From positions 1 to 64,000 of the forward strand of contig JANQNU010000015.1 of NCBI GenBank assembly GCA_028279405.1: a stretch of 64,000 nucleotides of DNA, read 5' to 3'. Numbering within the stretch: position 1 is the first letter of the stretch; the number at the start of each line of letters is the position of its first letter. This document shows positions 9,253 to 43,600 of the stretch, piece by piece. The translations under genes and the position numbers were made by a program. This stretch comes from Phycisphaerae bacterium. Its GTDB lineage: Bacteria > Planctomycetota > Phycisphaerae > UBA1845 > Fen-1342. The notes beneath the pieces are model-generated. The model searched no databases. It was given only the letters and a program-made list of their open reading frames with translations, and was not told where the DNA came from.

Positions 9253-10023
9253 GTGGCCAAGAAGAAGACGACTCGCAAGGTCAAGTCGGCAAAGAAGAGC
9301 GCTCGCAAGGCCAAGTCGGCCAAGGCCAGGTCGACAGCCGGACGAAAACGTGCCGCGACGAAGAAGACGAGCAAGTCGAAGAAAGCGGTCAAGCGCGTAA
9401 AGAAGGCGACGTCGAAATCGGCAAAGACCACCAAGACGGCCAAGAAAGCGAAGAAGAAGGTCGTCAAGAAGGCGGCGAAGGCCAAGCGTCCGACCGCGAA
9501 GAAGAAGACGACCAAGAAGGCTGGCTCGGCGAAGTCGGCTAGTCGCAAGTCGGGGTCGAGTCGACCTGCGCGGTCCACCGGTTCGGCGCGCGGCGTCGCT
9601 CCTTCGCCGGCGGCACCCGCGGCGGACAATGCCAAGAAGCTGAATGCGCGCGAGACGGAGGTTTTTCGGCAGTTGCTGCTCGAGAAGCGGGCGGAAATCG
9701 TCGGCGACATGAACACGTTGCACAGCGAAGCGATGAACACCTCCTCGGCGGCTGCCGGCGACCTGTCCTCGATGCCGATACACATGGCGGACCTGGGCAC
9801 CGACAATTTCGAGCGTGAGTTTACGCTGGGCCTGATGGAGGCGGAGCGGTCGCTCTTGCGAGAAATCGATGATGCACTCGACCGCATCCGCAAAGGTACC
9901 TATGGTCTGTGTATGGCGACCGGCCGGCCGATCGGCAAGGCGCGGCTCAAGGCGCAGCCGTGGGCGAAATATTGTTACGAGTACATGCTGCAGCAGGAAC
10001 AAGGCAGGCAGTTCCGGTATTAA
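9253..10023 (+). CDS. DksA/TraR-like regulator with histone-H1-like lysine tail
   Basis: This 256-residue protein has two parts. Residues 1-120 are extremely rich in Lys, Ala, Ser and Thr (repeats such as KKATSKSAKTTKTAKKAKKK), like bacterial histone-H1-like proteins. Residues 130-256 resemble DksA/TraR: a helical hairpin (ETEVFRQLLLEKRAEIVGDM and ERSLLREIDDALDRIRKG), then the C-terminal finger YGLCMATGRPIGKARLKAQP. DksA proteins bind the RNA polymerase secondary channel. Only one cysteine of each CxxC pair is left (C-MAT and C-YEY), so zinc binding is doubtful. The GTG start is set by the end of the upstream leader. lspA follows after 3 bp, so the two are probably co-transcribed. Confidence 0.83.
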   Translation: MAKKKTTRKVKSAKKSARKAKSAKARSTAGRKRAATKKTSKSKKAVKRVKKATSKSAKTTKTAKKAKKKVVKKAAKAKRPTAKKKTTKKAGSAKSASRKSGSSRPARSTGSARGVAPSPAAPAADNAKKLNARETEVFRQLLLEKRAEIVGDMNTLHSEAMNTSSAAAGDLSSMPIHMADLGTDNFEREFTLGLMEAERSLLREIDDALDRIRKGTYGLCMATGRPIGKARLKAQPWAKYCYEYMLQQEQGRQFRY

Positions 10024-10026
10024 TCT

Positions 10027-10917
10027 GTGACCTCCTCGATGCCACCTGATCCAACTCCCGTGAGTTCCGAAGTTCCCGGCGGCGCACCGTCGACATCCGC
10101 ATCGTCGTCGGAGTCGGCCGGGATGGCATTGCTCCATGTGCCGGCGCAGGCGCGTTTCTGGCTGATGGCAGCCGGGGGTCTGACGTTCGATCTCTGGTCG
10201 AAGGATTGGGCCTTTGGCACCCTGAAATGGGGAGAGAAGCGCGTGGTCCTGCCGCACGTGCTCGAGTTTCAGACGATGTTGAACGACGGGGCGCTCTTCG
10301 GGATCGGTTCCGGCCTCACCAGTCTGTTCTTGATCGCGTCCATGTTGGCGCTCGCGCTCGTGTTCTGGATGTTCACCCAGAGCGGTGCGAAACGTTGGGT
10401 GTTACACCTGGCACTCGGGGCGATCCTGGCCGGGGCGCTCGGCAACATGTACGACCGCGTATTCGTTCGGCTCGTGCGGTATTCGGACCATCCCGGTCGG
10501 ACTAGCGCGTTGCCGTTCTGGACGATAGACGGCGGCGATGTCGATACGGTGTTGCTCACGCGTTTTCCGGTGCAGGGCGAACCGGTCGAGAAGCGGCTCG
10601 CAAGGGCCGACGCCGCTCGGCTTGACCCGCCGGTGGGCTATGTACGCGATTTCATCAAGATCCCGACCACCTTCTGGGACCGCGAGTTATGGCCCTGGGT
10701 GTTCAACATCGCTGACACGCTGCTTGTCTGTGGCGTTGCCATTCTTGCGATCGGATTGTGGCGCGAGCAGCGTCCGATGTCCGAATCGGACGAACACGAC
10801 TTCGCACCCGCGGCGGGGTCCGAGGACGCCGACAGGTCGGTGGACGCACCGGGGGCGGCTGCCGTTCGCGAGTCAGTGGCCGACGTTCCCATTCCCCAGA
10901 AACCAAACGACGGATAA
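10027..10917 (+). CDS. lspA: Signal peptidase II (lipoprotein signal peptidase), enlarged
   Basis: This inner-membrane aspartyl protease cleaves prolipoprotein signal peptides; the many lipoproteins in this window would be substrates. The two catalytic motifs are present: GNMYDR (Asp143) and FNIAD (Asp230). They lie 87 residues apart, against fewer than 20 in E. coli LspA, so about 70 residues are inserted in the periplasmic region (PFWTIDGGDVDTVLLTRFPV onward). There is also a 40-residue Ser/Pro-rich N-terminal extension and an acidic 55-residue C-terminal tail. At 296 residues it is nearly twice the usual length. It follows the DksA-like gene with a 3 bp gap. Confidence 0.88.
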   Translation: MTSSMPPDPTPVSSEVPGGAPSTSASSSESAGMALLHVPAQARFWLMAAGGLTFDLWSKDWAFGTLKWGEKRVVLPHVLEFQTMLNDGALFGIGSGLTSLFLIASMLALALVFWMFTQSGAKRWVLHLALGAILAGALGNMYDRVFVRLVRYSDHPGRTSALPFWTIDGGDVDTVLLTRFPVQGEPVEKRLARADAARLDPPVGYVRDFIKIPTTFWDRELWPWVFNIADTLLVCGVAILAIGLWREQRPMSESDEHDFAPAAGSEDADRSVDAPGAAAVRESVADVPIPQKPNDG

Positions 10918-11286: not shown

Positions 11287-11886
11287 ATGCACGATACCAA
11301 GGCCCAGGGAAAGATTGTCCTGCCGACGGACGACGGCGGGATCGCTCAAGCGCTCTCGCAGCTGGATGCGCAGCTCGACGAGTGGATCGGGGCGCTCCGC
11401 GACGGGGTCGCGACGATGGCAGAGGTCGCGCGCCAGCCGGCGCCCGATCTGCAGTTCCCCGAACCGGAACCGGCGCCCGAGCCGGAGCCGGTTCAGGCCG
11501 CTCCGGAGCCTGCGCCACCGGTCGAGGTCGCTCCCGAGCAGCCGGTGGTAGAGCCGGTTGCGGAAGCGCCGACCATCGAAGTGCCAGCGGTGACCGAGAC
11601 CAAGCCGGCGAAGAAGCGCGGCCGAAAGCCCGCCAAGCCGAAGACGAAACAGGCCGAGCCGGAGCCGTCGGCTGAGCCGACGCCGATCGGCGAAGGGGAA
11701 GATCCGGACGAAGCGCTGCTGGACTCGCTCGATCCGGACACCGCGAAAGCGATTCGGGTCAAACGGCGGCTGACCGGAAACAAACGCAGTGTGCGCGAGC
11801 TGCTCGATGAGCTCGAAGGGGAGAGTGGAAAGCGTCGGCGCAAGTCGTCGGAGTCCGATTCGCAGCGCAAAGGCTGGTGGAGGTAA
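11287..11886 (+). CDS. Pro/Glu-rich linker protein, first gene of the GTPase operon
   Basis: This 199-residue protein of unknown function has a short helical N-terminus (residues 10-45, GIAQALSQLDAQLDEWIGAL). A long Pro/Glu/Ala-rich disordered stretch follows (PEPEPAPEPEPVQAAPEPAP), then a basic patch KKRGRKPAKPKTKQ resembling an AT-hook. A helical C-terminus (AIRVKRRLTGNKRSVRELLD) and basic tail end the protein. It looks like a scaffold or adaptor. The coiled-coil gene starts 3 bp after the stop, and its ribosome-binding site lies in the last codons here, so the two are co-translated. The start at ATG 11287 is preferred over GTG 11260; neither has a strong ribosome-binding site. Confidence 0.7.
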   Translation: MHDTKAQGKIVLPTDDGGIAQALSQLDAQLDEWIGALRDGVATMAEVARQPAPDLQFPEPEPAPEPEPVQAAPEPAPPVEVAPEQPVVEPVAEAPTIEVPAVTETKPAKKRGRKPAKPKTKQAEPEPSAEPTPIGEGEDPDEALLDSLDPDTAKAIRVKRRLTGNKRSVRELLDELEGESGKRRRKSSESDSQRKGWWR

Positions 11887-11889
11887 GGC

Positions 11890-12876
11890 ATGGCAGCGCA
11901 ACCGACAAACGACGGACTGCCCGTCATCGACGTCGAGCGGATCGAACAGCTCAGCCGCTCGGTCATCGAGAGTATGCACACGCTGCGCCAGCTGCTCGCG
12001 GACCGGGCCGTGATCCTCGAGCAGTATCAGGCCCAGTTGGTTCAGGAGAGTCAGGAGCTCGTGGAGCGCGAGCAGGAACTGGCGGAGCAATACGAGACGC
12101 GCGACGGTGAGATGACGGAGCGCGAGCAGCGCTGCGCTCAACTCGAGCAGGAGCAAGGCGAAACGGGGCAGCAACAACGGCTCGTGCAACAGGAGCTCGA
12201 GGAGCGCGCCGGTCAGCTCGAACAGCGCGAACAGGCCGCGGCAACCATTCAGCAGGACTTGGAGCAGCGGACGCAGGCGCTTGCCGGGCAGGAAAAGCAG
12301 ATTACCGAAGTGGCAGGCCAGGTCGAGCAGCAGCGTGCCCAGCTCGAGCAAGCGCAGGCGACGTTCGCAAAACGCGAGCAGGAGGTACAGGCCCAGGCGT
12401 CCGAGTTCGAAGCGCGCGAATCCGAACTGAACGCGAAGGAACAGGATGTCGCGAGTCGCGAGACGGTGATCGTCAAGCAACAGTCGGAGCTCGAAGCGAC
12501 CGTCAAGGAAATGCAGGCGCAGCAGGCCGATCTGACCGCGCGGCAGACTGAACTGGAAACGCTGGCCAAGACACTCCAGGCGCAACAGAAGCAGGTCGAA
12601 ACGGATCGCTCGCAAATCACGTTCCTGCAGGAGGCGTGCGAAGCGAAGATGCGTGAGGTGGAATCCGCCGCAGAGAGCGTCGAGAAGCTCAAACAGCAGC
12701 TGGAGAGCGAGATTGGCCAGTTGTCGGCGGAGCAGGAGGAGCTGTTGCCCAAGTACGGCTTGACGAAGGACGAGGATGGCAAGCCGGACGGCAACTTGCC
12801 GCAGCGATCGAACGACGCCATGGAGCGGCTGAAGAAGCTACGGCGCGACGCGAAGCGCCGAGCGATTGGTTCATAG
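11890..12876 (+). CDS. Long coiled-coil protein of the GTPase operon
   Basis: This 328-residue protein is almost wholly alpha-helical coiled coil. From residue 40 to about 285 it is Glu/Gln/Ala/Leu-rich with heptad spacing (REQELAEQYETRDGEMTERE and similar). The repeated start of segments with REQ/EREQ suggests internal duplication. The ends are short and non-repetitive; the last 30 residues are basic (MERLKKLRRDAKRRAIGS). There is no signal peptide or membrane helix, so it should be cytoplasmic. GGAGG precedes the ATG by 6 bp. Its place between the linker protein and the FGE-fold protein suggests a structural arm of a multiprotein complex, which is inference. Confidence 0.78.
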   Translation: MAAQPTNDGLPVIDVERIEQLSRSVIESMHTLRQLLADRAVILEQYQAQLVQESQELVEREQELAEQYETRDGEMTEREQRCAQLEQEQGETGQQQRLVQQELEERAGQLEQREQAAATIQQDLEQRTQALAGQEKQITEVAGQVEQQRAQLEQAQATFAKREQEVQAQASEFEARESELNAKEQDVASRETVIVKQQSELEATVKEMQAQQADLTARQTELETLAKTLQAQQKQVETDRSQITFLQEACEAKMREVESAAESVEKLKQQLESEIGQLSAEQEELLPKYGLTKDEDGKPDGNLPQRSNDAMERLKKLRRDAKRRAIGS

Positions 12877-12965
12877 GGTCAGTTGGTTCGGAGTGAAGCG
12901 GCAGTCGTGTCGCGCGTGTTGTATGTCACGATGAAGTTGTTCTGGTGGATGAGGATACGAGGGTA

Positions 12966-13967
12966 ATGCCCCTGCGATTTTTGTCATCCCTGTCGAAGCT
13001 CACCGAGCGGGAGAAGCCGCAGGCGGCGGCACCGCCAACGCCGCGCCCGCAGGACGTCTACACCCATGCGCCGCCGATCGATTACAGTCAGGATCCGATC
13101 GAGCGCGCCTTCCAGATGCAGCGCTACGGAATCATCGCGAGCTGCCCGGCGGAGTGGAGCGGGCAGCCGCAATTCGCGCGATACTTCAAGCAGGCCGAAG
13201 GCATCGTCGACGACGTTTTCGCGCTCGTCCCCGAAGGCGCAGTTTCGTTGTTGATGGGACTGAATGACGAGCCCGGCGCGCCGGAAACCGATTGCAAGAC
13301 CCGCCCGTACCTGCTGTCGATCCAAGCGGTCACGAACGAGCAGTTTCAGGCGTTCGTCGACGATAACGGCTATGAGAACTACGACCTCTTTCCGCAGCAG
13401 GTCTGGGCGCACCTGATCGACTTTCGCGATCAGACCGGGCAATCGTCGCCGCGCTTCTGGCGCAACGGGCGGCACGATGCGCGCCTGGCGAAGCATCCGG
13501 TGGTGGGGATCTGCTTTTACGAGGCATTGGCGTACGCGCGCTGGGCCGGCTACCGCTTGCCGACGGAGGCGGAATGGCAGATGGCCGCGTGCTGGCAGGT
13601 CGATGGCACGGATTTGCAGGCCCGCCGGTACCCGTGGGGTGACGCGTTGGACCTCGATCGGTGCAACATCTGGTCCAGCTCGAAGGGCGGCACGGTGCCG
13701 GTCGACGCTTGTCCGGGCGGCGCCGCACCCAACGGGGTGCTGCAACTGATTGGCAACACCTGGGAGTGGGTGGATTCTGATTTCCAGTGCAAGGATGAAG
13801 ACGGCGTCGACGTCGTCGGTGAGTCGCCGCTGAAGTCGATTCGCGGCGGCGCGTTCGATACCTATTTCCCGTGGCAGGCGACGAGCACGTTTCGCACCGG
13901 GCTCGGGCACCTGGCGCGCGTGCAGAATGTAGGTTTCCGTTGTGCACTGGATATGACCGGTGACTGA
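12966..13967 (+). CDS. FGE/sulfatase-modifying-factor-fold protein without catalytic cysteines
   Basis: This 333-residue protein has a C-terminal formylglycine-generating-enzyme (SUMF1) domain, about residues 85-330. Hallmarks are HPVVGICFYEALAYARWAGY, RLPTEAEWQMAA, YPWGD, GVLQLIGNTWEWV, IRGGAF and GFRC. True FGE uses a CxxxxC pair just before GFRC; the aligned stretch here reads WQATSTFRTGLGH and has neither cysteine, so oxidation activity is unlikely. Such domains often serve as C-type-lectin-like binding modules. The N-terminal 85 residues are specific to this protein. The start at ATG 12966 has GAGGG upstream; a GTG at 12945 is possible. It lies between the coiled-coil gene (89 bp gap) and the GTPase gene. 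Confidence 0.85.
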   Translation: MPLRFLSSLSKLTEREKPQAAAPPTPRPQDVYTHAPPIDYSQDPIERAFQMQRYGIIASCPAEWSGQPQFARYFKQAEGIVDDVFALVPEGAVSLLMGLNDEPGAPETDCKTRPYLLSIQAVTNEQFQAFVDDNGYENYDLFPQQVWAHLIDFRDQTGQSSPRFWRNGRHDARLAKHPVVGICFYEALAYARWAGYRLPTEAEWQMAACWQVDGTDLQARRYPWGDALDLDRCNIWSSSKGGTVPVDACPGGAAPNGVLQLIGNTWEWVDSDFQCKDEDGVDVVGESPLKSIRGGAFDTYFPWQATSTFRTGLGHLARVQNVGFRCALDMTGD

Positions 13968-13991
13968 CCGGCTGCGTTGGGAGACTCGATC

Positions 13992-14870
13992 GTGTCCATG
14001 ATTCTCGACGGCATTATTGATTGCCTGATTTGCGATACGGAGAATCCGGCGCAACAGACCCTGTGCGTCAAATGCTCCGCACCACTCGCGCTGGTGACGA
14101 GCACGTACGGGGCGAAGCGCGATCCGCAGATCGTTACCGTCATGGGTGACAGTAACGTGGGCAAGACGGTTTACCTGGGCTTCCTGCTGGACATGCTCTC
14201 GCTGCGGGCCAACCAGTTCGAAGCCGTGCCGAAAGGTGCGTACTCCGTCGATCTGCAGCAGACCGTCATCAGCTACATGGCCTACCGGATGTTTCCGCCG
14301 AAAACGCCGGTGGAGGCCAATCAGTGGAAGTGGTCATACTACGAGATTCTGCAACGTGAGTCCGAGGCCGCCAAATATGTCGACTTGGTGACGCCGGACC
14401 TTGCAGGCGAGGCGATTGCGGCCGAGGTGGCATCGCCGTCGACGTTCCGGATCATTCAGAGTCTGCTCTACAAGTCGTCCGCGATGCTGCTGCTGGTCGA
14501 CGCGGCCCTGGCGGCGAGCGGATCTTCGCAGCCGGACTTCTTCGGGCTGAAGATGCTCAGCTACGTCGAGTCGATGTTGCCGGCGGGCAAGAAAGGGCGG
14601 ACGCTGATCGACATGCCGGTGGCGGTCGTGTTGACCAAGGCGGACTACGTGCCGGCATGCTTCGACGATCCGCGGCGCTTCGCGGAAGCGAATCTCAACC
14701 GCCTGTGGAATATGTGTGAGAGTCGATTCTCTACCGTCGAGTTCTTTGCCAGCAGCGTGATCGGGTCGCTCGCCTACGCGGCCAGTGACGAGGTCGTCAC
14801 GCCGATCCCCCTGCATACCGCTTTGTCGGGAATCCTGGAGCCGTTCGAATGGATTATCGATCAGCTGTAA
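13992..14870 (+). CDS. Zinc-ribbon P-loop GTPase (GAP1-associated type)
   Basis: This 292-residue cytoplasmic protein opens with a zinc ribbon, C11-x2-C14-x10-C25-x2-C28. It is followed by a GTPase domain with P-loop GDSNVGKT (residues 52-59), a switch-II-like DLAGE, and the guanine-specificity motif TKAD in AVVLTKADYVP. The pattern fits the GTPases found next to GAP1 proteins (double-GTPase class) rather than translation or ribosome-assembly GTPases; the class name is recalled from the literature and not checked. The GTG at 13992 was chosen because GGGAG lies upstream; TTG 13977 and ATG 13998 are alternatives. Its stop overlaps the next start (TAATG), implying translational coupling and fixed stoichiometry. 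Confidence 0.83.
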   Translation: MSMILDGIIDCLICDTENPAQQTLCVKCSAPLALVTSTYGAKRDPQIVTVMGDSNVGKTVYLGFLLDMLSLRANQFEAVPKGAYSVDLQQTVISYMAYRMFPPKTPVEANQWKWSYYEILQRESEAAKYVDLVTPDLAGEAIAAEVASPSTFRIIQSLLYKSSAMLLLVDAALAASGSSQPDFFGLKMLSYVESMLPAGKKGRTLIDMPVAVVLTKADYVPACFDDPRRFAEANLNRLWNMCESRFSTVEFFASSVIGSLAYAASDEVVTPIPLHTALSGILEPFEWIIDQL

Positions 14871-15961
14871 TGGGCCGTCCGTTGCGGGCGACCGGCACCA
14901 AGGCCAACCCGCTTGCGATCGAACAAGCGATCTACACGTCGATCCGGACGCCGCTCGGTACCGGCTACCGTATCGTGTCGGCGAGCAGCGGCTTGACGAC
15001 CGCCGAGCAGCAGGAGATCAATCGTCGCGCGCCATCCCACGGTATGCTCAGCGACGACGGCGAAGAGGCCACCGGGTTCGCTTGCTTCCGGCTGGAGAGT
15101 GGCCGGCATTGCATGCTCGACTCCTGTCATGCCGGTTTGGAGCAGACCGCGCGCGGCGGTCGACGAGTACACACTCACGCGTTCGTCTTCAGCGACACGC
15201 TGTATGAGCGGAGCGGCTTCAATCCGTTCCTGGTGATGGAGATCGGACGCCAGGAAGTTCCTGCCAACACGATCAGCAAGCCGCCGAAGACGCTGCGGGC
15301 GATCGACGCATCGCCGGATCAGCTCGCGCCGCGCGGCATCGCGGACGTCGGTTCGGTGGAGGATGCGTACCCGCTGCTGTCGTTGCTGGCGCGCGCCCTC
15401 GAGCAAGAAGATCACATCGTGTTGAATGCGGCAGCGCCGGAAGCGCTGCTGCGGATGCTGCTCGCCGCGATGCCCGCGGTGCTGCGCAACGAGCTGTCGT
15501 TCAGTTGGGGGATGCGGTGCTCTCCGGAGCGGAAGTTCCATCTGACGTTCTACGACGCGACGCCAGCCGAGTGCGAGCTGTACACCAACGATCATCAGGT
15601 CGGCATCTTCGATTGGACGCAACCGCCGGCCTGGTCGGCGGAGTCGACGTACGGCCCGTGGGTCAACTACGTCCAAAGCGAGCTGCGGCTGGGCAGCAAC
15701 GGCTATCGTAGTCTCGCGACGGCCCTGAACATGATCGAAGGCTCACACACGATTACACTTGCAGCCCGATTGGCGGCGGACATGCGCGGACTCGACGAAG
15801 CCACGCTGGAGCAGGCCAAGCGCACCCTCGAGCGCTATCAATCGATCCAATCCGAAAATCGCGTCGTCCGCGGCCTGCTCGATGAAGTCCGCGGTATGGC
15901 CCAGGAACGCATCGACCTGCTCGAGCCCGAATCCGACGAGGCCACCGACGCGGAATCCTAG
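14870..15961 (+). CDS. GAP1-like GTPase-associated protein
   Basis: This 363-residue protein has an N-terminal domain matching my recollection of GAP1-N: EQAIYTSIRTPLGTGYRIVS, then SSGLTTAEQQEINRRAPSHG, and the conserved RRVHTHAFVFS. The middle and C-terminal parts resemble the GAP1 M and C regions (SLLARALEQEDHIVLN; LLAAMPAVLRNELSFSWGMR). GAP1 proteins were described as constant partners of GTPases in NTP-dependent conflict systems; their biochemical role is not known to me. The ATG at 14870 overlaps the GTPase stop as TAATG; an in-frame ATG at 14849 would add seven residues. It is the last gene of the operon and is followed directly by a repeat island. Confidence 0.78.
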   Translation: MGRPLRATGTKANPLAIEQAIYTSIRTPLGTGYRIVSASSGLTTAEQQEINRRAPSHGMLSDDGEEATGFACFRLESGRHCMLDSCHAGLEQTARGGRRVHTHAFVFSDTLYERSGFNPFLVMEIGRQEVPANTISKPPKTLRAIDASPDQLAPRGIADVGSVEDAYPLLSLLARALEQEDHIVLNAAAPEALLRMLLAAMPAVLRNELSFSWGMRCSPERKFHLTFYDATPAECELYTNDHQVGIFDWTQPPAWSAESTYGPWVNYVQSELRLGSNGYRSLATALNMIEGSHTITLAARLAADMRGLDEATLEQAKRTLERYQSIQSENRVVRGLLDEVRGMAQERIDLLEPESDEATDAES

Positions 15962-16393
15962 CGAACGGGGAGCAAGCTCCCTTGATGAGGCCCGTGTCTA
16001 CGCCACGGGCCCCGACGCGAACCAGACGCCAAACACAACGAGCCGCGAGCGCAAGCGAGCGGGGAGCAAGCTCCCTTGATGAGGCCCGTGTCTATGCCAC
16101 GGGCCCCGACGCGAACCAGGCGCCAAACACAACGAGCCGCGAGCGCAAGCGAGCGGTCTGGGTGGCACTGGCAATGCAAAGGGGCAATGCCCCGTTGTCC
16201 GCCAGTGTAGGGAACGCGCGTTTGATGAAGTCGCTAGTGGATTCGGCGAATAATGCACAAGCGTGCCCCCTGAATACTGGTAGCAAGCTACCAGTGCCAC
16301 CCGGTGTTCATGCGAAATCCTTCACTGGTGGCTTGTCCGCCGAGGGCATCGGGGTGGACGAGACGCGGCGCGACGACGCCAGTGTTGCCAGGC
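15962..16393. repeat. Mosaic island of palindromic repeats
   Basis: No gene is visible. Two P5-P1 units stand in tandem: double hairpin 15968-16011 with P1 at 16039-16062, then double hairpin 16062-16105 with P1 at 16133-16156. A P4 variant interrupted by an extra hairpin follows (16163-16206). At 16276-16295 a perfect palindrome, actgg/ccagt around TAGCAAGCTA, is the P5 first hairpin standing alone with a different stem. The island lies between the convergent ends of the GTPase operon and the DUF1080 gene. Confidence 0.87.
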
Positions 16394-18544
16394 CTACGGC
16401 AGTCGACGGATCTTGATGTTACGGTACCAGACGCGGTCGCCGTGGTCCTGGAGTGCGATGTGTCCGCTGCGTGGACGGCCGTACTCGGGCATCTTCGAGA
16501 ACTTGCTGGCTGCGACGCGTTGCTTCCAGTCCTCGCTCCACAACTCGTACTCGACGATCTTTTCGCCGTTGAGCCAGTGCTCGACGTGCGGGCCGTTGAC
16601 GACCAGATGGACTTCGTTGAAGAACCCGACCGGGCGCGTCACGTCACGCGTTGCCGCATGAAGCGCATAGTTTGCGCCCGCCGACGTTGACGTGTTCTTG
16701 CCGTCGTAGTGCGCGCGGTTGTCGAGCACCTGCATCTCGGGGCCGGTCAGGTAGACAGCGTTCTGATCCTCGGAGACGTGGAAGAAGATGCCGCTGTTGC
16801 CGCCGGCGGAGATCCGCCAATCGAGCTTCAGCTCGAAGTTCTCGTACTCTTCTTCCGTGATAAGATCGCCCGCCGAGCCGGTCAGGACCAGACAGTTGTC
16901 GACCACTTGCCATGCTGGCGGGCAGGCGTCCTTGCGGAAGCCGCGCCAGTTGGCGGTCGTCTGACCATCGAAGAGCAGCTTCCAGCCTGCGTCGCGTTCC
17001 TGTTCGGTGAGCACATTCTGCGCCGCACGCAACGGCGGTGGTCGACGGAACCCGGGACGGTCGGTCGGAATCGCGTTGACGGTGATCCAAGACTCGGTCG
17101 TGTATGGCAGTTCGCCGGTCTCGGAGAGGCAGGGGGGCAGCAGGCGCAGGTAGACGATGCTACTTGGTTGGATTCCGTCGATTTCGAGGAACACGCTTCG
17201 GCGATCCGTGGCGACACTGGCGCCTTTGACGAACAGCGTCGATTCGGGACTTCGAATGGGCATCGGGTGTGGCTTCGTAATCGGCCACAGCTCGACGTGA
17301 TAGTCGGCTGGGTCCCAGCCGACGCGCTTGTCGAGGGCTTGCGTGAAGTCGATGCGCAGACCGTTCGTCATCACGCGCACCGAACGCATTTCGAAGACGT
17401 CGACGCCGGAGGGAGCGAGCACGGCGATTGAAAACATGCCGGGTTCGTACGCCGATTTGTTGTTGTTACTACGGCCGATGGCGAGACCGCCGCGCGGTAA
17501 TGCAATGGCGCTGTCGCGTGGGTCCAGGCCACCGATGAATCGAAACGCCGCGAAGTTGTGCTGGTCGCCGACCGGATCGAGCGCCAGGCGCAAGAGTTCG
17601 TCGGTTTCGTACACTCGGAAGAGTTGATCGCCATCGAACGGGCCACCTTGCATCGTTCGAACTGGCGTGGGCTCGGCGGAGGCCGAGTCGGCTGGCATGG
17701 GCTCGCGTGCCTTGTGCTCGGCAAGCCGCATGTGCCATTGGTCCAGTCCGCCGTAATGCGCGAAGGCCTTGTCTTTGAGGTGCCCGAAACTTCGTCGAAG
17801 GCCATCAACCAGTTGCGCTGACATCAGTGACGCCTGCAGCTTCTCGATCGCCTTCGGGTTGTCGAGCGCGCGGTCGGGTCGTTTGCGAAAGGCCGGGTGC
17901 AGGCCGGCTACCGGCGATCCGTCGCCGGGCAATCCGCGCCGCAGCGGCTTGACGATCTTTTTGACGCCGGGCGATGTTGCGAGCGATTCGTCCTTGTGGT
18001 GAAACAGCACGCCGGCCGGCACGAGTTCGAACGCATCGTCGGTGGCTTCCATATTAGGCGTCGGGATCCAGCGCAGTCGGAGCGTCTCTTCCGCGCCGGC
18101 GTCGAAATGCAAGATCCGGAACGTTTGGTACTCCAAGAGTTCGACGGCTGCCCGTTTCGGCGTTGGTCCGTGGAGACCGTCGTGGTCGATGACGCGTTCA
18201 AGGCCGATCCACAAGATCGCGCCGTCGTCGCTGGTCAGTTCGAAGTGGTAACGGCCGGGTCGCGACACGTGCAGGAATCCGCGAATCTCCGTCACGAAGC
18301 GGTCCTTGGGCGGGCCGAACCCGCCGTTCTCGGTGGTCAGATCGATTGTTGGGATCACGCGGGCCGCGTTGGGGACAATATTCGCCGGCGCCTCGACGAC
18401 GCGATTCACGCGTCGATCGCCCTCCCAGACGCGCAGCACCGCGCCTGCCCGGAAATCGTCGGCGCCCGGCTGGTCGTCGGCCAGTCCGCCGACCGACGCA
18501 TTGATACCGATGAGAAGAAATGCGGCCAAGACCGAGTAGCGCAT
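16394..18544 (-). CDS. Secreted DUF1080 (3-keto-disaccharide hydrolase-like) protein with PA14-like N-terminus
   Basis: This 716-residue exported protein has a signal peptide (YSVLAAFLLIGINASVGGLA). A PA14-like lectin domain lies at about residues 35-165 (GFLHVSRPGRYHFELTSDDG, ILWIGLERVIDHDG). A long middle region contains Gly/Asp-rich strand segments. The C-terminal DUF1080 domain (about 530-716) begins GWKLLFDGQTTANWRG and includes GNSGIFFHVSED and GHIALQDHGDRVWYRNIKI. DUF1080 has a concanavalin-like fold and is now named for 3-keto-disaccharide hydrolase. The arrangement suggests glycan binding or cleavage at the cell surface. The ATG at 18544 has GAGGA seven bases upstream; the longer frame to 18577 lacks one. 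Confidence 0.86.
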   Translation of the reverse strand: MRYSVLAAFLLIGINASVGGLADDQPGADDFRAGAVLRVWEGDRRVNRVVEAPANIVPNAARVIPTIDLTTENGGFGPPKDRFVTEIRGFLHVSRPGRYHFELTSDDGAILWIGLERVIDHDGLHGPTPKRAAVELLEYQTFRILHFDAGAEETLRLRWIPTPNMEATDDAFELVPAGVLFHHKDESLATSPGVKKIVKPLRRGLPGDGSPVAGLHPAFRKRPDRALDNPKAIEKLQASLMSAQLVDGLRRSFGHLKDKAFAHYGGLDQWHMRLAEHKAREPMPADSASAEPTPVRTMQGGPFDGDQLFRVYETDELLRLALDPVGDQHNFAAFRFIGGLDPRDSAIALPRGGLAIGRSNNNKSAYEPGMFSIAVLAPSGVDVFEMRSVRVMTNGLRIDFTQALDKRVGWDPADYHVELWPITKPHPMPIRSPESTLFVKGASVATDRRSVFLEIDGIQPSSIVYLRLLPPCLSETGELPYTTESWITVNAIPTDRPGFRRPPPLRAAQNVLTEQERDAGWKLLFDGQTTANWRGFRKDACPPAWQVVDNCLVLTGSAGDLITEEEYENFELKLDWRISAGGNSGIFFHVSEDQNAVYLTGPEMQVLDNRAHYDGKNTSTSAGANYALHAATRDVTRPVGFFNEVHLVVNGPHVEHWLNGEKIVEYELWSEDWKQRVAASKFSKMPEYGRPRSGHIALQDHGDRVWYRNIKIRRLP

Positions 18545-18604
18545 CGTGTCATCCTCGTTTCGGAGAAGCCGAGCCACTGGAACGCCGACTCATGATACGG
18601 CATC

Positions 18605-19713: not shown

Positions 19714-21993
19714 CTACGGTCGGGCACGAGCAGCGTCGTGCGCGGCTTGCCAGCGTGCCTGGGCTGCCTGGGCGACCGGATGGTCGGCGTCAAGAAGGGC
19801 TGCGAGCGTGGTACTGACCTCTTCCAGGAGATCGACGGCCGCTGCCGGGCGGCCGTGTGCTACGAGGAAGCGCGCGTGCCGGTCGAGCGCCAGGGCGCGA
19901 ACGTAGTGCTCCTTCGGCAGGGTGGCGCGCACGTCGGCCGTCACTTCCGCGAAGAGCGGCTCTGCGTCATCAGGTCGCTCCGCGAAGTTCAGAAGGTCCG
20001 CCAAGTCCAGCCGCGCCTGTATGAGCGCCAACGGTTCCTGCGTTTGAGCAATCGTCCGCCGGAGGTACGACTCGGCTTGGTCCAGGTCGCCTGCGGCGCG
20101 GGCGACGCGCGATTGCATGCGGAGCGTCTGCGGATGACCGTCGGGCCAGTCTCGCGCGAGCAGGTCCGCCGCCCCCTGTGTTGCTTGTCGAGCGGTTTCG
20201 ATCTGCCCGGCCGTCAATGCCGCCTTCGCCCAGCGAAGGTAGTCCGCGGGCCGCTCGTCATCGTCGTTGTCGGCACCCATGGCCAACGCGCTTGCGCAAA
20301 GATGTCGGCCCTCATCCGTGTCGCCGGCGCCGTAGGCACAAAGACCGAGTCCGAGCTCGATGGTCGCGGGCGCAACCGGAGGCGGATCGTGCAGCGCGTT
20401 CAGCGCACGTGCGGATTGCCAGCTCTCGTAGGCCGCGGACTCATTCATGGAACGCGCTTGTGCCGTTGCGAGCGCGACCAGGCAGAGGACGCGTTCGGCG
20501 CTCTCTCGGGTTGCAGTATTCGCGCCAAGCAACGTGTCGGCTCGTCGCAGCTGTTCGATGGCGCGATCCAGATGTGCGATTCGAGCGTATCGTCCGCCGA
20601 TCCGTCGGCGCAGCATGGCTTCCAGTTGCGGATCCGCCGGCGCGAGGGAATCCACGCGCGCTGCCGCGCGGTCGAGCAACGCTCGGACCGTCGTCGCCGC
20701 CCGTAGATGGTCAGGGGCGTCGTCACTGGCAAGCGTTTCGTCGAAGAAGTCGGCGATGCGCTCGGCACGTACAGCGTTCTGAAGGGCACGATCGCGATCG
20801 GTCCGGGCGATCCCGAGCGACCAGCGCGTGACGCCGAGACCCGCGAGCACGGCCAGGCATAGCGCTGTCGTCAAGCTGACCGTCACGGTATTGCGTTGCA
20901 CGAACTTGCCGACCCGGTACGTCCAGGCATTCCGCTTGGCCCGTATCGGTCGGTTCTCGAGGACTCTTTCCAGGTCCTCGATCAGTGCTTGCACGGTTGC
21001 GTACCGCCTGCCTGAATCCGGATCGAGCGCCCGGAGCAGGATCGTGTCGACATCGCCGGCAACGAATCTGCGTGTCGTGGCGGCGGCCGCGCGTCCCAGC
21101 ACCCGGCTGGGAGCCGCCGGCGTCGCTGGTTCCGGCTGTTCTTCGGACTCCGTCGATCCGGGGAGCCGGTCGGTCAACAGTTGATAGAGCACGACACCCA
21201 GCGAGTAGACCTCGCTTGTCGGCGTCAGCGCCTCTCGGCGTTGCTGTTCGGGGCTTGCGTACGCCGGGGTGAACGCTGACCACGTCGTCTGGGTCGCGGC
21301 CTGATCGTCGTCGATTCGCGCGATGCCGAAGTCGACGAGGAACGGCGTCCCCTGCGCATCAACGAGCATATTGGCTGGCTTGAGATCGCGGTGAAGCACC
21401 AGGTTCTGATGCGCGTGCTGCACCGCGTGCGCGAATCGGCACAACAGCCGAACGCGCTCGCGTGGGCGCAGATCTTGCGCTTCGCAATAGCGATCGATCG
21501 GTACCCCGCGGATCAAGTGCATCGCGAGCCAGCCGGCGCCGCGCTCGGTGACACCGCCGTCGATGAGCCGTGCAATGTGCGGGTGGTGCAGGCGTGCGAG
21601 CGCACGCCGTTCGTTTTGGAAGCGCCGAACGAGCGCGGGCTCGGAAAGCGGCAAATGCAGCAGCTTCAGCGCCACCCGGTCGTTTGGTGCGTTCTCGGGA
21701 ACCGCCTCGTATACCGTCCCCATGCCGCCGACCGCGACGACAGCCTCCAAGCGATAGCCGCCGATGATGCTCCCCAGCGCGCGCTCGGCAAAATGGGCGG
21801 CGATTGCCGACGAGCGGCCGGGATCACCCGGCTGCAGGAAATCGTCGGGGATCTCCTGGTGTATCAGCTGCGCGAGCGCGTCGCGCACCGGCCCGTTGGG
21901 AGTTCGCTCGAGCACCTCGCATTGGTCAGCGCGCGGCGTCTCGCGGAGCGTCTCCAGCGCCGTGCGTAGCGTACGCCATTCGTCCGGGGTCAC
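19714..21993 (-). CDS. Transmembrane serine/threonine protein kinase with TPR-like C-terminus
   Basis: This 759-residue kinase has a domain at about residues 80-350: glycine loop AVVAVGGMGTVYEAV, Lys110 in VALK, HRDLKPAN with Asp203, DFG at 221-223, and APE-like YASPEQ. A single membrane helix follows near residue 400 (LTTALCLAVLAGLGV). The C-terminal half is Ala/Leu-rich helical repeats typical of TPR-type arrays in planctomycete kinases. The GTG start overlaps the sigma factor stop by 4 bp (GTGA), so the two are translationally coupled. This matches the ECF groups linked to protein kinases; phosphorylation of the sigma factor by the kinase is inference. Confidence 0.92.
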   Translation of the reverse strand: MTPDEWRTLRTALETLRETPRADQCEVLERTPNGPVRDALAQLIHQEIPDDFLQPGDPGRSSAIAAHFAERALGSIIGGYRLEAVVAVGGMGTVYEAVPENAPNDRVALKLLHLPLSEPALVRRFQNERRALARLHHPHIARLIDGGVTERGAGWLAMHLIRGVPIDRYCEAQDLRPRERVRLLCRFAHAVQHAHQNLVLHRDLKPANMLVDAQGTPFLVDFGIARIDDDQAATQTTWSAFTPAYASPEQQRREALTPTSEVYSLGVVLYQLLTDRLPGSTESEEQPEPATPAAPSRVLGRAAAATTRRFVAGDVDTILLRALDPDSGRRYATVQALIEDLERVLENRPIRAKRNAWTYRVGKFVQRNTVTVSLTTALCLAVLAGLGVTRWSLGIARTDRDRALQNAVRAERIADFFDETLASDDAPDHLRAATTVRALLDRAAARVDSLAPADPQLEAMLRRRIGGRYARIAHLDRAIEQLRRADTLLGANTATRESAERVLCLVALATAQARSMNESAAYESWQSARALNALHDPPPVAPATIELGLGLCAYGAGDTDEGRHLCASALAMGADNDDDERPADYLRWAKAALTAGQIETARQATQGAADLLARDWPDGHPQTLRMQSRVARAAGDLDQAESYLRRTIAQTQEPLALIQARLDLADLLNFAERPDDAEPLFAEVTADVRATLPKEHYVRALALDRHARFLVAHGRPAAAVDLLEEVSTTLAALLDADHPVAQAAQARWQAAHDAARARP

Positions 21994-22532
21994 GCGGTTT
22001 CTCCGTGCAGTTCGTTGTAAAGCCACTGACGCGCGGTGGCCCAACTGCGCTCGACGGTTCGCCCCGACACGTTCATCAACTGAGCGATCTCGTCCACCGG
22101 TAACCCGAGGAAGTATCGCAGGTGCACGACCTTTGCCAGGTCGGCGTCTAGCGTCTGCAGGCGTTCCAGGGCGGCGTCGAGGGCCAGCAGGTCGATGGTC
22201 TCGAACCCGACCGGTTGGACGAGTTCCTCGGACGGCTGGTCCGGCCGCACGCCGCCGCCGCGTTTGAGCGCGGCCCGTTTTCGCGCATGGTCCACCAGGA
22301 TGTTGCGCATCGTACGGGCGGCGGCCGCCAGAAATTCTCCGGGATTCATCTCCGCGGTGTTGCGGATCCGCAGGAACACCTCGTGTACGAGCGCCGTGGG
22401 CTGCAGGGTATGGTCGCGCCGCTCGCGGCCCATGTAGCGCAACGCCATCTGGCACAGCGCTCGATAAGCGGTGTCGCGCCAAGCGTGCTCGGAACCGGTG
22501 GTCGGGTCAGTTTTTTTGTCGGGAGAATCCAT
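21990..22532 (-). CDS. ECF-type RNA polymerase sigma factor
   Basis: This 180-residue sigma factor has region 2 with HTLQPTALVHEVFLRI and ARTMRNILVDHARKRAALKR, which is diagnostic for the planctomycete/acidobacterial ECF group known as TIGR02999. Region 4 is a helix-turn-helix (LPVDEIAQLMNVSGRTVERS). No anti-sigma gene is adjacent; instead the kinase gene follows with a 4 bp overlap, so regulation by phosphorylation is plausible. The start ATG lies in a stretch with TTTTTT on the plus strand, and a ribosome-binding site is not clear. Confidence 0.93.
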   Translation of the reverse strand: MDSPDKKTDPTTGSEHAWRDTAYRALCQMALRYMGRERRDHTLQPTALVHEVFLRIRNTAEMNPGEFLAAAARTMRNILVDHARKRAALKRGGGVRPDQPSEELVQPVGFETIDLLALDAALERLQTLDADLAKVVHLRYFLGLPVDEIAQLMNVSGRTVERSWATARQWLYNELHGETA

Positions 22533-40600: not shown

Positions 40601-43600
40601 GACGCACCGGCCGACCCCGGCGACGGCATGGACGACGGCATCGACATCATCTTCGGTGGAACCGGCGACGACCAGGTCTACAGCGGTAGCGGCGGATTGG
40701 TCGACTTCGGCGGTACCGTCCAGTTCACCTTCGGTGCGCTGATCTTCGGTAACCCGGGCAACGACACGCTGATCGCGGACTATCTGGTACCCACCGTGCC
40801 CGAAGAAGGCATCGACCTGATCTTCGGCGCCGCCGGCGACGACATCATCAACGGCGGACCGGGCTCGACCATTCAGATTGGTACCTCGCCGAACCAGGTG
40901 CTCATCGACTTCGGTGGTTTGCTCTTCGGCGGTGTCGATAACGATACCATCGACGGTGGCGACGACATGGACCTCGTCTTCTGCGGCCGTGGTGACGATA
41001 CCGCGCGGACCTTCGACGGGATCGATCTGGCGTTCGGCAGTCCGGGCGAAGATAACATCATCGGTGAAGATGGTGGGCAGATCATCATTCCCATCATGGG
41101 CGTGCCGACCCCCATTCCGCTCGGAAACATCTTCTTCGGCGGAGATGATAACGACAGGATCACAAGCGAAGGCCGACTGCTGATCGATATCGATCTGCTC
41201 TTCGGGAACGAATGCGACGACATCATTCGCGCCGGAAGCGGACTGCTCGATCTCAACTTCGGCAACCGCGGCAACGATACGATCTTTGGTGAGGAGTCGT
41301 TCGACCTGACGTTCGGCAATCGTGGCGATGACACGATCGACGCCGGACCCGGAATCTTCGACCTCACGTTCGGCAACCGCGGCGACGATACTATCCGCGG
41401 CAACAACGGCCCCGACCTGATCTTCGGCAACAGCGGCGCCGACGACATCGACGGCGGAAACGGACTGATCGATCTGCTCTTCGGCAACACCGAGCCGGAC
41501 ATCATTCGCGGCGGGGCCGGATTGAACATCATGTTCGGCAACCGCGGCGGCGACCTGATCATCGGCGGCGGCGGGCTCGACATCGCGTTCGGCAATCGCG
41601 GCAACGACGACATCGATGGCGGTCCGGGGCTCGATATCCTCTTCGGCAACCGCGATAACGACGTCGTCAACGGTAACGACGGCCTCGACCTCGTTTTTGG
41701 TAATCGCGGCAACGATGACGTCCTTGGCGGAAACGGGCTCGACCTGCTGTTCGGTGGCGACAACGATGACTGGCTCTTCGGTCAGAACGATCTCGACCTG
41801 ATGTTCGGTGGCGCCGGTGCCGACAAGCTCTTCGGCGGGCCGGGCACGGGGCTGTTCTTCGGTGGCAGCGGAAACGACATCCTGATCGGTGACACCGCCC
41901 TCGACCTGCTCTTCGGCGGTCGCAACAACGACTGGATCGCCGCCGGCGGTGGTACCGACATCGCGTTTGGTAACCGGGACAACGATACCATCTCCGGCCA
42001 GGGCGGAACCGACTTCCTCTTCGGTAACCGTGGCAACGATGATATCGACGGCGGACCGGGGCGTGACTTCGTGTTCGGCAATCGCGGTGAAGACCGCTTG
42101 CTGAGCAACACCGGTCGCGACTTCATGTTCGGCAACCGCGACAACGACTTCCTCAGGAGCGGTTCCGACGGGAGTGAGCGCGACTACCTCTTCGGCAACC
42201 GTCACGACGATATCCTGCACGGCTGCAACAACGACGACAAGCTCTACGGCGGCCTGGGCAGTGATACCAAGGATCAGGACAACTGCGCCAACTTCACTTT
42301 CGCCGGTCCGGGGAACTGTGCCTCGATCAGCGGAACGGTGCGGCAGGACATCGACGGAAACGGCAGTGGCGACGTGGGGATGCCCGGCGTTACCGTCTAC
42401 CTCGACTTGAACAACAACGGTGTTCTCAATGGCGGTGAGCCCACCACGGTCACCATCAACGATAACCCCGATACCCACGAGGACGAGGCCGGCTTCTACC
42501 AGTTCACGAACCTGGCGCCGGGCAATTACGTCGTCCGGCAGGTTGTACCGGTCGGATTGGTGCAGACGTCGCCGGCGGGCGGTCATAGCGTGGGTCTCGG
42601 TAACTTCACGCGCGCCACCGGTCGCGACTTCGTCAACTTCGACAACTGCACGCCGGTGGAAAACGCTGCGGGAATTCTCTCGTGCGAGATGTGCGAGTGC
42701 CAGCAGGGCTTTGAGCCGGTGCTCGTCGAAGTCATCGAGATGCGCTGCCCGGACGGTTCGCCGTGCCAGAGCGACGGTGAGTGCAGTTGTGGCGGTTGCG
42801 TGCCGATGGTCGTCGATCGGCGTTGCGAGTGCCGACCCATTCAGGGTGGTGCTTGCTCGCATGGTGAACCGGCGTACGTCGGTCAAGGCGGGATCATCCC
42901 GGACAGCACCGGCGGCCCTGGCGTTCCGTTGACGACGGCGATTTCCGTACCGGACAGTTTCCTGATCACGCACGTCAGCGTGTCGCTGAACGGTCTGGAT
43001 CATACGCGGGTCGGCGACCTGTCGGCGGTTGTCACGAGCCCGATGGGGACCAATGCGACGCTCTTCTTCCGGGTCGGTCGTTTCGGCAGCGGAACGGGTG
43101 ACACGAGTGCGTATTGCGGTGTCTACGGATTCGACACGCGCAGCATGCGTGATCTGTGGGCGGAAGCGCAAAGTACGCTGGCCGACCTGTGCGTCGCGTC
43201 GGATTGTTACTTCCCGACCGATCCGGACTCGGCGCAGCCGAACAATTCGCTGGCGGCCTTTAACGGTGAGAACGCCAATGGCAAGTGGGTCCTGCGAATT
43301 GTTGACCACGCGCGGCTGTTTGATGGCGCGCTGCAAAGCTGGACCCTCAACTTCAATGGTGTCTTGCTCGAGCCGGAAGGCGCAGCCGTGCCGCGCAAGG
43401 TGACGGTGATGTTGTCAAGCGGTTCAGATGATGAGGTTCCGGGCCCTGTCGAGGTGATCCCCGACGCGGAAGGACTCGCACCTGACACGACTTCGTCGCT
43501 CGAGGGTGCGGTTGAGGATCCCGTTCCGGCGCAGGTGGAGCCGTTGATCGATCTGGGTGCGGGACCGCCGAACGATCCGTTGCGGGCGAACGAGGTCCGA

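What the first reader, a model, noticed from the sequence alone, without database searches (positions are those of the whole stretch)
11287..15961. Five-gene GTPase/GAP1 operon resembling NTP-dependent conflict systems
Seen directly: five co-directional genes with short gaps, and a TAATG overlap between the zinc-ribbon GTPase (P-loop GDSNVGKT, TKAD) and the last gene. That last protein carries the GAP1-N-like signature (EQAIYTSIRTPLGTGYRIVS, RRVHTHAFVFS). From the literature as I recall it, GAP1 proteins pair with such GTPases and with FGE-fold (FGS) domains in GTPase-centred conflict systems. The added Pro/Glu linker protein and 328-residue coiled coil would make a large complex of sensor (FGE fold), switch (GTPase) and scaffold. 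No toxin or nuclease gene is visible, so either the effector lies elsewhere or the system signals in another way.
Basis: partly seen in the sequence, partly recalled or inferred. Interest (0 to 1): 0.8.

Follow-up and report, generated by a model that had tools for sequence, protein, structure and literature searches.

The report
GTPase switch with coiled-coil scaffolds
Five neighbouring genes in a planctomycete bacterium encode a GTPase, a likely regulator of it whose predicted shape resembles regulators of membrane traffic in our own cells, an inactive enzyme-like protein and two scaffold proteins; the set is conserved across a bacterial order and looks like a cell-organising switch rather than a weapon.

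Summary
The five genes are real. The last two are a DO-GTPase and a GAP1-N2 protein (Pfam, above cut-off), so this belongs to the GTPase-centred systems of Kaur et al. 2020, who already mention planctomycete GAP1-N2 systems with FGE-fold (FGS) proteins. The conflict-system reading is weaker. FGE-GTPase-GAP1 occurs together in all 80 fetched relatives (Phycisphaerae, Pirellulales), so the FGE protein is core, not a variable effector. It lacks the FGE cysteines. There is no FNIII component, effector gene or defence island, and the GTPase is slightly more conserved than TrpD. The two upstream genes are undescribed scaffolds. B is a coiled coil with a near-invariant C-terminal tail. A has a conserved C-terminal module and basic WW/WF tail; the same module ends a divergently encoded 820-1,670-residue coiled-coil protein in 24 relatives. 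Pirellulales prefix the triad with a REC-DUF4388 regulator, an FHA coiled-coil protein and a second coiled-coil protein. AlphaFold gives the GTPase a Ras/Rag/YcjX-like fold and GAP1 a longin-plus-DENN-like fold (best hits DENND10, DENND1A/B), with an invariant Arg in the longin part. I favour a GTPase switch controlling coiled-coil scaffold assembly or tethering; moderate confidence.

The parts
11287..11886 (+). Gene A: scaffold protein, short form; N-terminal helix, Pro/Ala/Glu-rich linker, conserved C-terminal module (about residues 142-180, DEALLDSLDPDTAKAIRVKRRL...KSVRELLDEL) and C-terminal KGWWR
   Evidence: module HMM built from short forms finds 26 loci with short and 24 loci with giant (824-1670 aa, - strand) proteins at E<1e-3 among 17,446 ORFs, nearly all at the C-terminus
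11890..12876 (+). Gene B: 328-aa coiled coil with near-invariant C-terminal tail (consensus ERFQKLCRDAKRKAIG; here MERLKKLRRDAKRRAIGS)
   Evidence: tail HMM hits 65 of 80 loci, all at the extreme C-terminus; SMC-like coiled-coil matches
12966..13967 (+). Gene C: FGE/EgtB-like C-type-lectin-fold protein without the FGE cysteines (RGGAFDTYFPWQ)
   Evidence: PF03781 1.7e-39; nearest solved EgtB, OvsA, SUMF2, FGE; conserved D298, Y300, F301, Q304 in place of C-x4-C
13992..14870 (+). Gene D: DO-GTPase with one N-terminal zinc ribbon; P-loop G52xxNxGKT, DxAGE (D136-E140), KAD (K216-D218)
   Evidence: DO-GTPase1/2 above cut-off; 67-sequence alignment; AF2 pLDDT 88, small-GTPase fold
14849..15961 (+). 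Gene E: GAP1-N2 protein (likely start 14849, alternative 14870); longin-like (about 16-155, numbered from the 14870 start), alpha/beta (163-248) and helical (262-362) parts; invariant E91, R95, R206, R221
   Evidence: PF20013 8.9e-14, in 72 of 73 aligned sequences; AF2 pLDDT 92.6; DENN/longin/TagF matches; conservation

Best explanation
The operon encodes a cytoplasmic GTPase-controlled scaffold. D is a Ras/Rag-type molecular switch. E is its dedicated regulator (GAP, GEF or both), gripping it with a longin-plus-DENN-like module and probably inserting invariant Arg95 as a catalytic finger. C is a catalytically dead FGE-fold core subunit that binds a ligand or a partner's tail. A and B are extended scaffolds whose coiled-coil or linker middle is free to vary in length, while the conserved C-terminal modules dock to the C-D-E core (or to the membrane). 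GTP loading would switch docking on and off and so place or assemble the scaffold in the cell, as golgins are placed by Arl1 or polarity proteins by MglA. In Pirellulales the same core takes input from a REC-DUF4388 response regulator and an FHA protein. Shown: the genes, their conservation, folds as models, invariant residues, the link between A and the giant coiled coils. Inferred: binding, GAP/GEF activity, docking, scaffold or tether function.
For: C-D-E co-directional in 80/80 loci where contigs allow. A-B-C-D-E order in 14 or more of 20 further loci. B tail in 65 loci; A module shared by 26 loci with short and 24 loci with giant proteins. Pirellulales REC-DUF4388 / FHA-coil / coil / C-D-E operon. 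AF2 of E: DENND10 Z 8.8 over 262 residues, DENND1A:Rab35 8.4, DENND1B:Rab35 7.5, TagF 7.0, GATOR1 and FLCN-FNIP2 5.8-6.0, first unrelated row about Z 5.3. AF2 of D: Gtr1/Rag Z 14.8, YcjX about 14 with the widest coverage. R95 and E91 invariant in 73/73; longin GAPs use an Arg finger from the longin domain (SMCR8 Arg147, PMC8213707). No hydrophobic segment long enough for a membrane span. No recurrent effector.
Against: No experiment. E's DENN similarity is structural only: no sequence-level match to longin/DENN chains, and rmsd is 6-7 A. The complex was not modelled. Patchy presence within the order (29 of 61 genomes) shows it is dispensable. Short A has no coiled coil, which fits a tether less well. 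Pirellulales tails are not detectably homologous to A/B tails. Tubulin, HSP70 and other GAP1-N2 themes suggest the family does several jobs.
Confidence: 0.45

Rival explanations
1. Conflict (anti-invader) system as proposed by Kaur et al. for DO-GTPase/GAP1: invasion is sensed, the GTPase-GAP1 pair sets a threshold, and the FGE-fold protein acts as a non-enzymatic effector that sequesters or walls off the invader together with the coiled coils.
For: Core pair matches the described family, and GAP1-N2 systems with FGS domains are reported in planctomycetes (PMC7159879). GAP1 evolves fast (17-35% identity) while the GTPase stays at 48-70% in Phycisphaerae. Presence in the order is patchy.
Against: FGE is invariant rather than variable; no FNIII, TM, SLATT, peptidase or nuclease partner; flanks mostly metabolic; GTPase tree mostly follows families; no experimental defence data found for any GAP1-N2 system.
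Confidence: 0.28
2. Envelope or membrane stress module comparable to YcjX with the Psp system: the GTPase responds to membrane damage and recruits coiled-coil proteins to the membrane.
For: YcjX is the structural match with the widest coverage of D (227-232 residues, Z about 14). DO-GTPase family proteins occur in Psp operons and are predicted to act in membrane-related stress (PMC11237479). A and B end in basic or aromatic-basic tails that could touch membrane.
Against: No PspA/B/C or other Psp gene in the operon; no TM segment; FGE and GAP1 have no counterpart in Psp.
Confidence: 0.12
3. A regulatory module like the TagF-Fha control of type VI secretion, here governing some other machine: the longin-type protein holds or releases an FHA scaffold.
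For: GAP1 model resembles TagF (9t0n, Z 7.0); the Pirellulales operon has an FHA protein; TagF directly binds Fha (PMC5995506).
Against: Profile comparison of GAP1 and TagF gives no support (probability 0.6%); T6SS has no GTPase; FHA is absent from the window's operon.
Confidence: 0.05

Closest known systems
DO-GTPase / GAP1-N2 GTPase-centred systems (Kaur et al. 2020, PMC7159879)
   Same: DO-GTPase with N-terminal zinc ribbon, GAP1 gene directly downstream, GAP1-N2 subtype, FGE-fold (FGS) partner already noted in planctomycetes.
   Different: FGE partner invariant instead of a variable effector; no FNIII protein, no second GTPase, no TM or effector gene; two scaffold proteins with conserved C-terminal modules and the Pirellulales REC-DUF4388/FHA inputs are not mentioned in the text read; the longin/DENN-like fold is not mentioned there.
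Longin-DENN regulators of small GTPases (DENND1/10, FLCN-FNIP, C9orf72-SMCR8, GATOR1)
   Same: Predicted fold of GAP1 matches over most of its length; partner is a small GTPase; conserved Arg in the longin-like part.
   Different: No sequence homology detected; eukaryotic proteins act on Rab/Rag/Arf; activity on D untested; the DENN module has been described as eukaryotic (PMC3521125).
MglA-MglB polarity switch
   Same: Bacterial Ras-like GTPase with a dedicated regulator of the roadblock/longin class, placing proteins in the cell.
   Different: MglB is a small roadblock protein, no FGE or scaffold operon; D is a different family (MglA 3t1t_A only Foldseek rank 15).
Golgins (Arl1-GRIP coiled-coil tethers, PMC4707255)
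   Same: Long, length-variable coiled coil with a conserved C-terminal anchoring module alongside a small GTPase.
   Different: Analogy only; no sequence link, and the short form of A lacks the coil.
SUMF2 / FGE / EgtB
   Same: Same domain family (Pfam FGE-sulfatase); SUMF2 is also an inactive paralogue (own knowledge).
   Different: Lacks FGE cysteines and EgtB's iron-binding N-terminal domain; in a GTPase operon.

Membership tests
DO-GTPase/GAP1-N2 system | GTPase of the DO-GTPase family with conserved Glu in the Walker B/G3 motif | tested here: met
   PF19975 33.7 and PF19993 31.1 bits, cut-offs 27; E140 invariant in 67/67
DO-GTPase/GAP1-N2 system | GAP1 with N2-type N-terminal domain, encoded next to the GTPase | tested here: met
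   PF20013 52.1 bits; 72 of 73 aligned sequences; adjacent in 78 of 80 loci, the other two cut by the contig end
DO-GTPase/GAP1-N2 system | GAP1-M and GAP1-C domains | tested here: inconclusive
   No match over Pfam cut-off; GAP1-M at E 0.036 in 2 of 73; the model does show three parts
DO-GTPase/GAP1-N2 system | FNIII-repeat protein in the operon | tested here: not met
   No FN3 match in the five proteins and none among the 25 most frequent families of 100 sampled neighbours
DO-GTPase/GAP1-N2 system | Variable effector component | tested here: not met
   FGE gene present in 80/80 loci; no other effector-like family recurs
DO-GTPase/GAP1-N2 system | Role in biological conflict | not testable with these tools
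   Needs phage or plasmid challenge
Active formylglycine-generating enzyme | Catalytic cysteine pair in the C-terminal RGGSxxCxxxxC region | tested here: not met
   Window reads RGGAFDTYFPWQ; no Cys pair at these positions in the relatives shown or in the alignment to 6s07
EgtB/OvoA-type sulfoxide synthase | N-terminal DinB-like iron-binding domain | tested here: not met
   Pfam finds only FGE-sulfatase 104-327; EgtB model 103 bits against a cut-off of 360
Longin-DENN protein | Longin plus DENN fold | tested here: inconclusive
   AF2 model pLDDT 92.6; DENND10 Z 8.8 over 262 aa, rmsd 6.9, DENND1A/B 8.4/7.5; no sequence match
Longin-DENN protein | GAP or GEF activity on the partner GTPase | not testable with these tools
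   Only indirect: invariant R95 and adjacency to the GTPase
TagF | Sequence homology to TagF_N (PF09867) | tested here: not met
   Not found in the Pfam scan of 73 GAP1 sequences; hhalign probability 0.6%

The most novel reading that the evidence does not exclude
Planctomycetes use a bacterial DENN-like regulator with a Rag/Arf-like GTPase to place long coiled-coil tethers, a prokaryotic system comparable to the GTPase, DENN and golgin logic of eukaryotic membrane traffic; the DENN-type module would then predate eukaryotes or have arisen twice.
Probability: 0.18. Interest if true: 0.9.

Novelty: new variant of a known kind. Interest (0 to 1): 0.6.

Why it matters
GAP1 proteins were named for an unknown function, and the systems were filed as conflict systems from gene neighbourhoods alone. 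A longin/DENN-like predicted fold with an invariant arginine turns this into a directly testable claim: GAP1 is a GAP or GEF of its neighbouring GTPase. The invariant FGE-GTPase-GAP1 triad with two scaffold proteins argues that at least this branch organises the cell rather than kills invaders. Planctomycetes have elaborate membranes and unusual cell division (own knowledge), so a conserved GTPase-scaffold module there bears on how a bacterium might organise its interior, and on where the DENN module, so far described as eukaryotic, came from.

Tried and rejected
Active FGE: rejected, cysteines absent. TagF homology: hhalign 0.6% (a first run, used wrongly oriented sequences and was discarded). 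Defence island: 100 sampled neighbour ORFs gave only scattered PADLOC matches, e.g. one type IIG enzyme, a few mads genes and kinase-type hits. FNIII partner: not seen. Co-occurrence with type IV pili or flagella: uninformative, since PilT is in 61/61 and flagellin in 59/61 relatives. DUF4388 regulator as a general partner: rejected for this order (1 of 61). Solved-structure sequence searches with GAP1 returned only helical designs and weak helical matches, and with the GTPase only zinc fingers. Promoter and terminator scans no better than shuffles. No Rfam match in the window. Homology of the Pirellulales scaffold tails to A and B: not supported by profile search, so kept as analogy.
Full report
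WHAT IS THERE. Five co-directional ORFs occupy 11287-15961, bounded upstream by lspA (10027-10917) with a 369-base gap and downstream by a convergent gene (16394-18577, PA14/3-keto-disaccharide hydrolase). Pfam: C is FGE-sulfatase (1.7e-39), D is DO-GTPase1/2 (3.1e-8, 2.3e-7, above cut-off), E is GAP1-N2 (8.9e-14). A has no domain match; B is coiled coil with weak SMC-like matches. PADLOC recognises none of C, D, E. The genome has one copy. Many relatives start GAP1 at the equivalent of 14849 (22-nt overlap with the GTPase), not 14870.

PRIOR ART. Kaur et al. 2020 (PMC7159879) described DO-GTPases, GAP1 and its N1/N2 subtypes, and stated that some planctomycete GAP1-N2 systems carry FGS (FGE-fold) 'effectors'. 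Their text does not mention longin, DENN, roadblock or TagF, nor the two scaffold genes in the passages read; their supplements could not be read. In the held library only two papers use their terms.

CONSERVATION. A GAP1 search hit 30 of 61 genomes, a GTPase profile 29 of 61, and only 9 of 392 genomes sampled across the phylum (the query genome included), the rest at much lower scores. In 20 loci read in full, A-B-C-D-E stand in this order in at least 14. In 80 named loci (nearly all Phycisphaerae MAGs, seven Pirellulales-type including Rhodopirellula and Stieleria) C-D-E are adjacent and co-directional in all, E missing only in two truncated contigs. Identity to the window over 20 relatives: D 54-69%, C 45-56%, B 20-36%, E 22-34%. 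The neighbouring TrpD gives 32-66%, mostly 43-66%, over the same genomes, so the GTPase is slightly more conserved than an ordinary enzyme. Its tree needs 8 family changes (least possible 6, shuffled mean 20): mostly vertical, with some transfers or duplications. Absence from half of the order, including many genomes over 90% complete, means loss or dispensability.

SCAFFOLD GENES. B ends in a near-invariant tail; an HMM of it finds 65 loci, all at the extreme C-terminus. A was called a linker protein, but it has a conserved N-terminal helix (LDxxLxxW), a variable Pro/Ala/Glu stretch, a 36-40-residue C-terminal module and usually a WW/WF-basic end. An HMM made only from short A proteins finds, among 17,446 ORFs, 26 loci with short proteins and 24 loci where a minus-strand ORF of 824-1670 residues upstream of B carries the module at its C-terminus. 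So the same gene exists as a short linker form and as a giant coiled coil encoded divergently. In Pirellulales the triad is preceded by a REC-DUF4388 regulator, an FHA coiled-coil protein (FHA 1.1e-10) and a short coiled-coil protein. Their tails look similar by eye, but no profile match was found, so I treat them as analogous only. No other gene family recurs around the triad. A hundred sampled neighbours are mostly metabolic, without FN3 or effector families among the frequent ones and with only scattered defence matches.

FGE-FOLD PROTEIN. Nearest solved relatives are EgtB, OvsA, SUMF2 and FGE. Where FGE has RGGSFLC....C the window has RGGAFDTYFPWQ; D298, Y300 and F301 are conserved and no cysteine pair is present. 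It lacks EgtB's N-terminal domain. It is therefore a non-catalytic core subunit with a conserved pocket, invariant in the operon, unlike a variable effector.

STRUCTURES. D (67-sequence alignment, pLDDT 88) is a small-GTPase fold: Gtr1/Rag Z 14.8, Rap, Arl, Rab similar, YcjX about Z 14 with the widest coverage. E (73 sequences, pLDDT 92.6) gives a consistent list: DENND10 8.8 (262 aa), DENND1A:Rab35 8.4, DENND1B:Rab35 7.5, TagF 7.0, GATOR1-KICSTOR chains 6.0, FLCN-FNIP2 5.8, an Asgard longin 5.8, Ykt6 5.7, VAMP7 5.4; the first unrelated row is about 5.3. The longin part is the firmer match; the DENN part rests on DENND1/10 and a 6-7 A rmsd. There is no sequence-level link, and the tool's own caution for Z near 8 applies. 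Among 73 sequences E91, R95, R206 and R221 are invariant; R95 lies in the loop between strands 80-90 and 98-107 of the longin-like part. In C9orf72-SMCR8 the longin domain supplies Arg147 as the catalytic finger, and the same is proposed for FLCN and NPRL2 (PMC8213707). That R95 does this is an inference; no residue-level superposition was available.

MECHANISM. My best reading: D is a switch; E is its regulator; C is an inert core or receptor domain; A and B are extended scaffolds whose conserved ends dock to the core or membrane while their length varies. GTP-dependent docking would assemble or place the scaffold. In Pirellulales, phosphorylation signals (REC, FHA) feed the same core. This works like MglA-type polarity switches or, more loosely, Arl1-golgin tethering; membership in those families is not claimed. 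Kaur et al. themselves noted that GAP1-N2 themes point to regulated assembly of cytoskeleton-like complexes, which fits.

VERDICT. Real, a member of a described family, but a distinct and better-defined variant whose conflict role is doubtful. The longin/DENN-like fold of GAP1 is the most valuable lead.

Noticed in passing
window 15960-16156 and further places in the window: Two tandem 94-base units just after the operon contain GAGCCGCGAGCGCAAGCGAGCGG, a dispersed repeat with 58 exact copies in the genome (reversed control 0) and 15 exact or near copies in the window.
   Followed up: partly
L161:3661-5316, L163, L165, L168 equivalents: Pirellulales operons start with a REC-DUF4388 (PATAN-type) response regulator overlapping the FHA coiled-coil gene; DUF4388 is almost absent from the window's own order (1 of 61).
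   Followed up: partly
L050:5701-6792 (-): A GAP1-N2 relative in one genome of the order (G057) that has no match to this GTPase family; its own partner was not examined.
   Followed up: no
L145 (same contig as L080): Second, divergent C-D-E copy (GTPase 53% identical) without A or B in a genome that also has the full operon.
   Followed up: no
window 9253-10023: DksA/TraR-type zinc-finger protein with a long Lys/Ala-rich, histone-like N-terminal tail.
   Followed up: no
window 41214-41754: Long arrays of 27-111-base repeats that read like Gly-Asn-Asp calcium-binding (RTX-like) repeats by eye.
   Followed up: no
window 19714-22482 (-): Ser/Thr kinase with TPRs 4 kb from the operon; of interest given the FHA protein in Pirellulales, but no conserved linkage was seen.
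   Followed up: no
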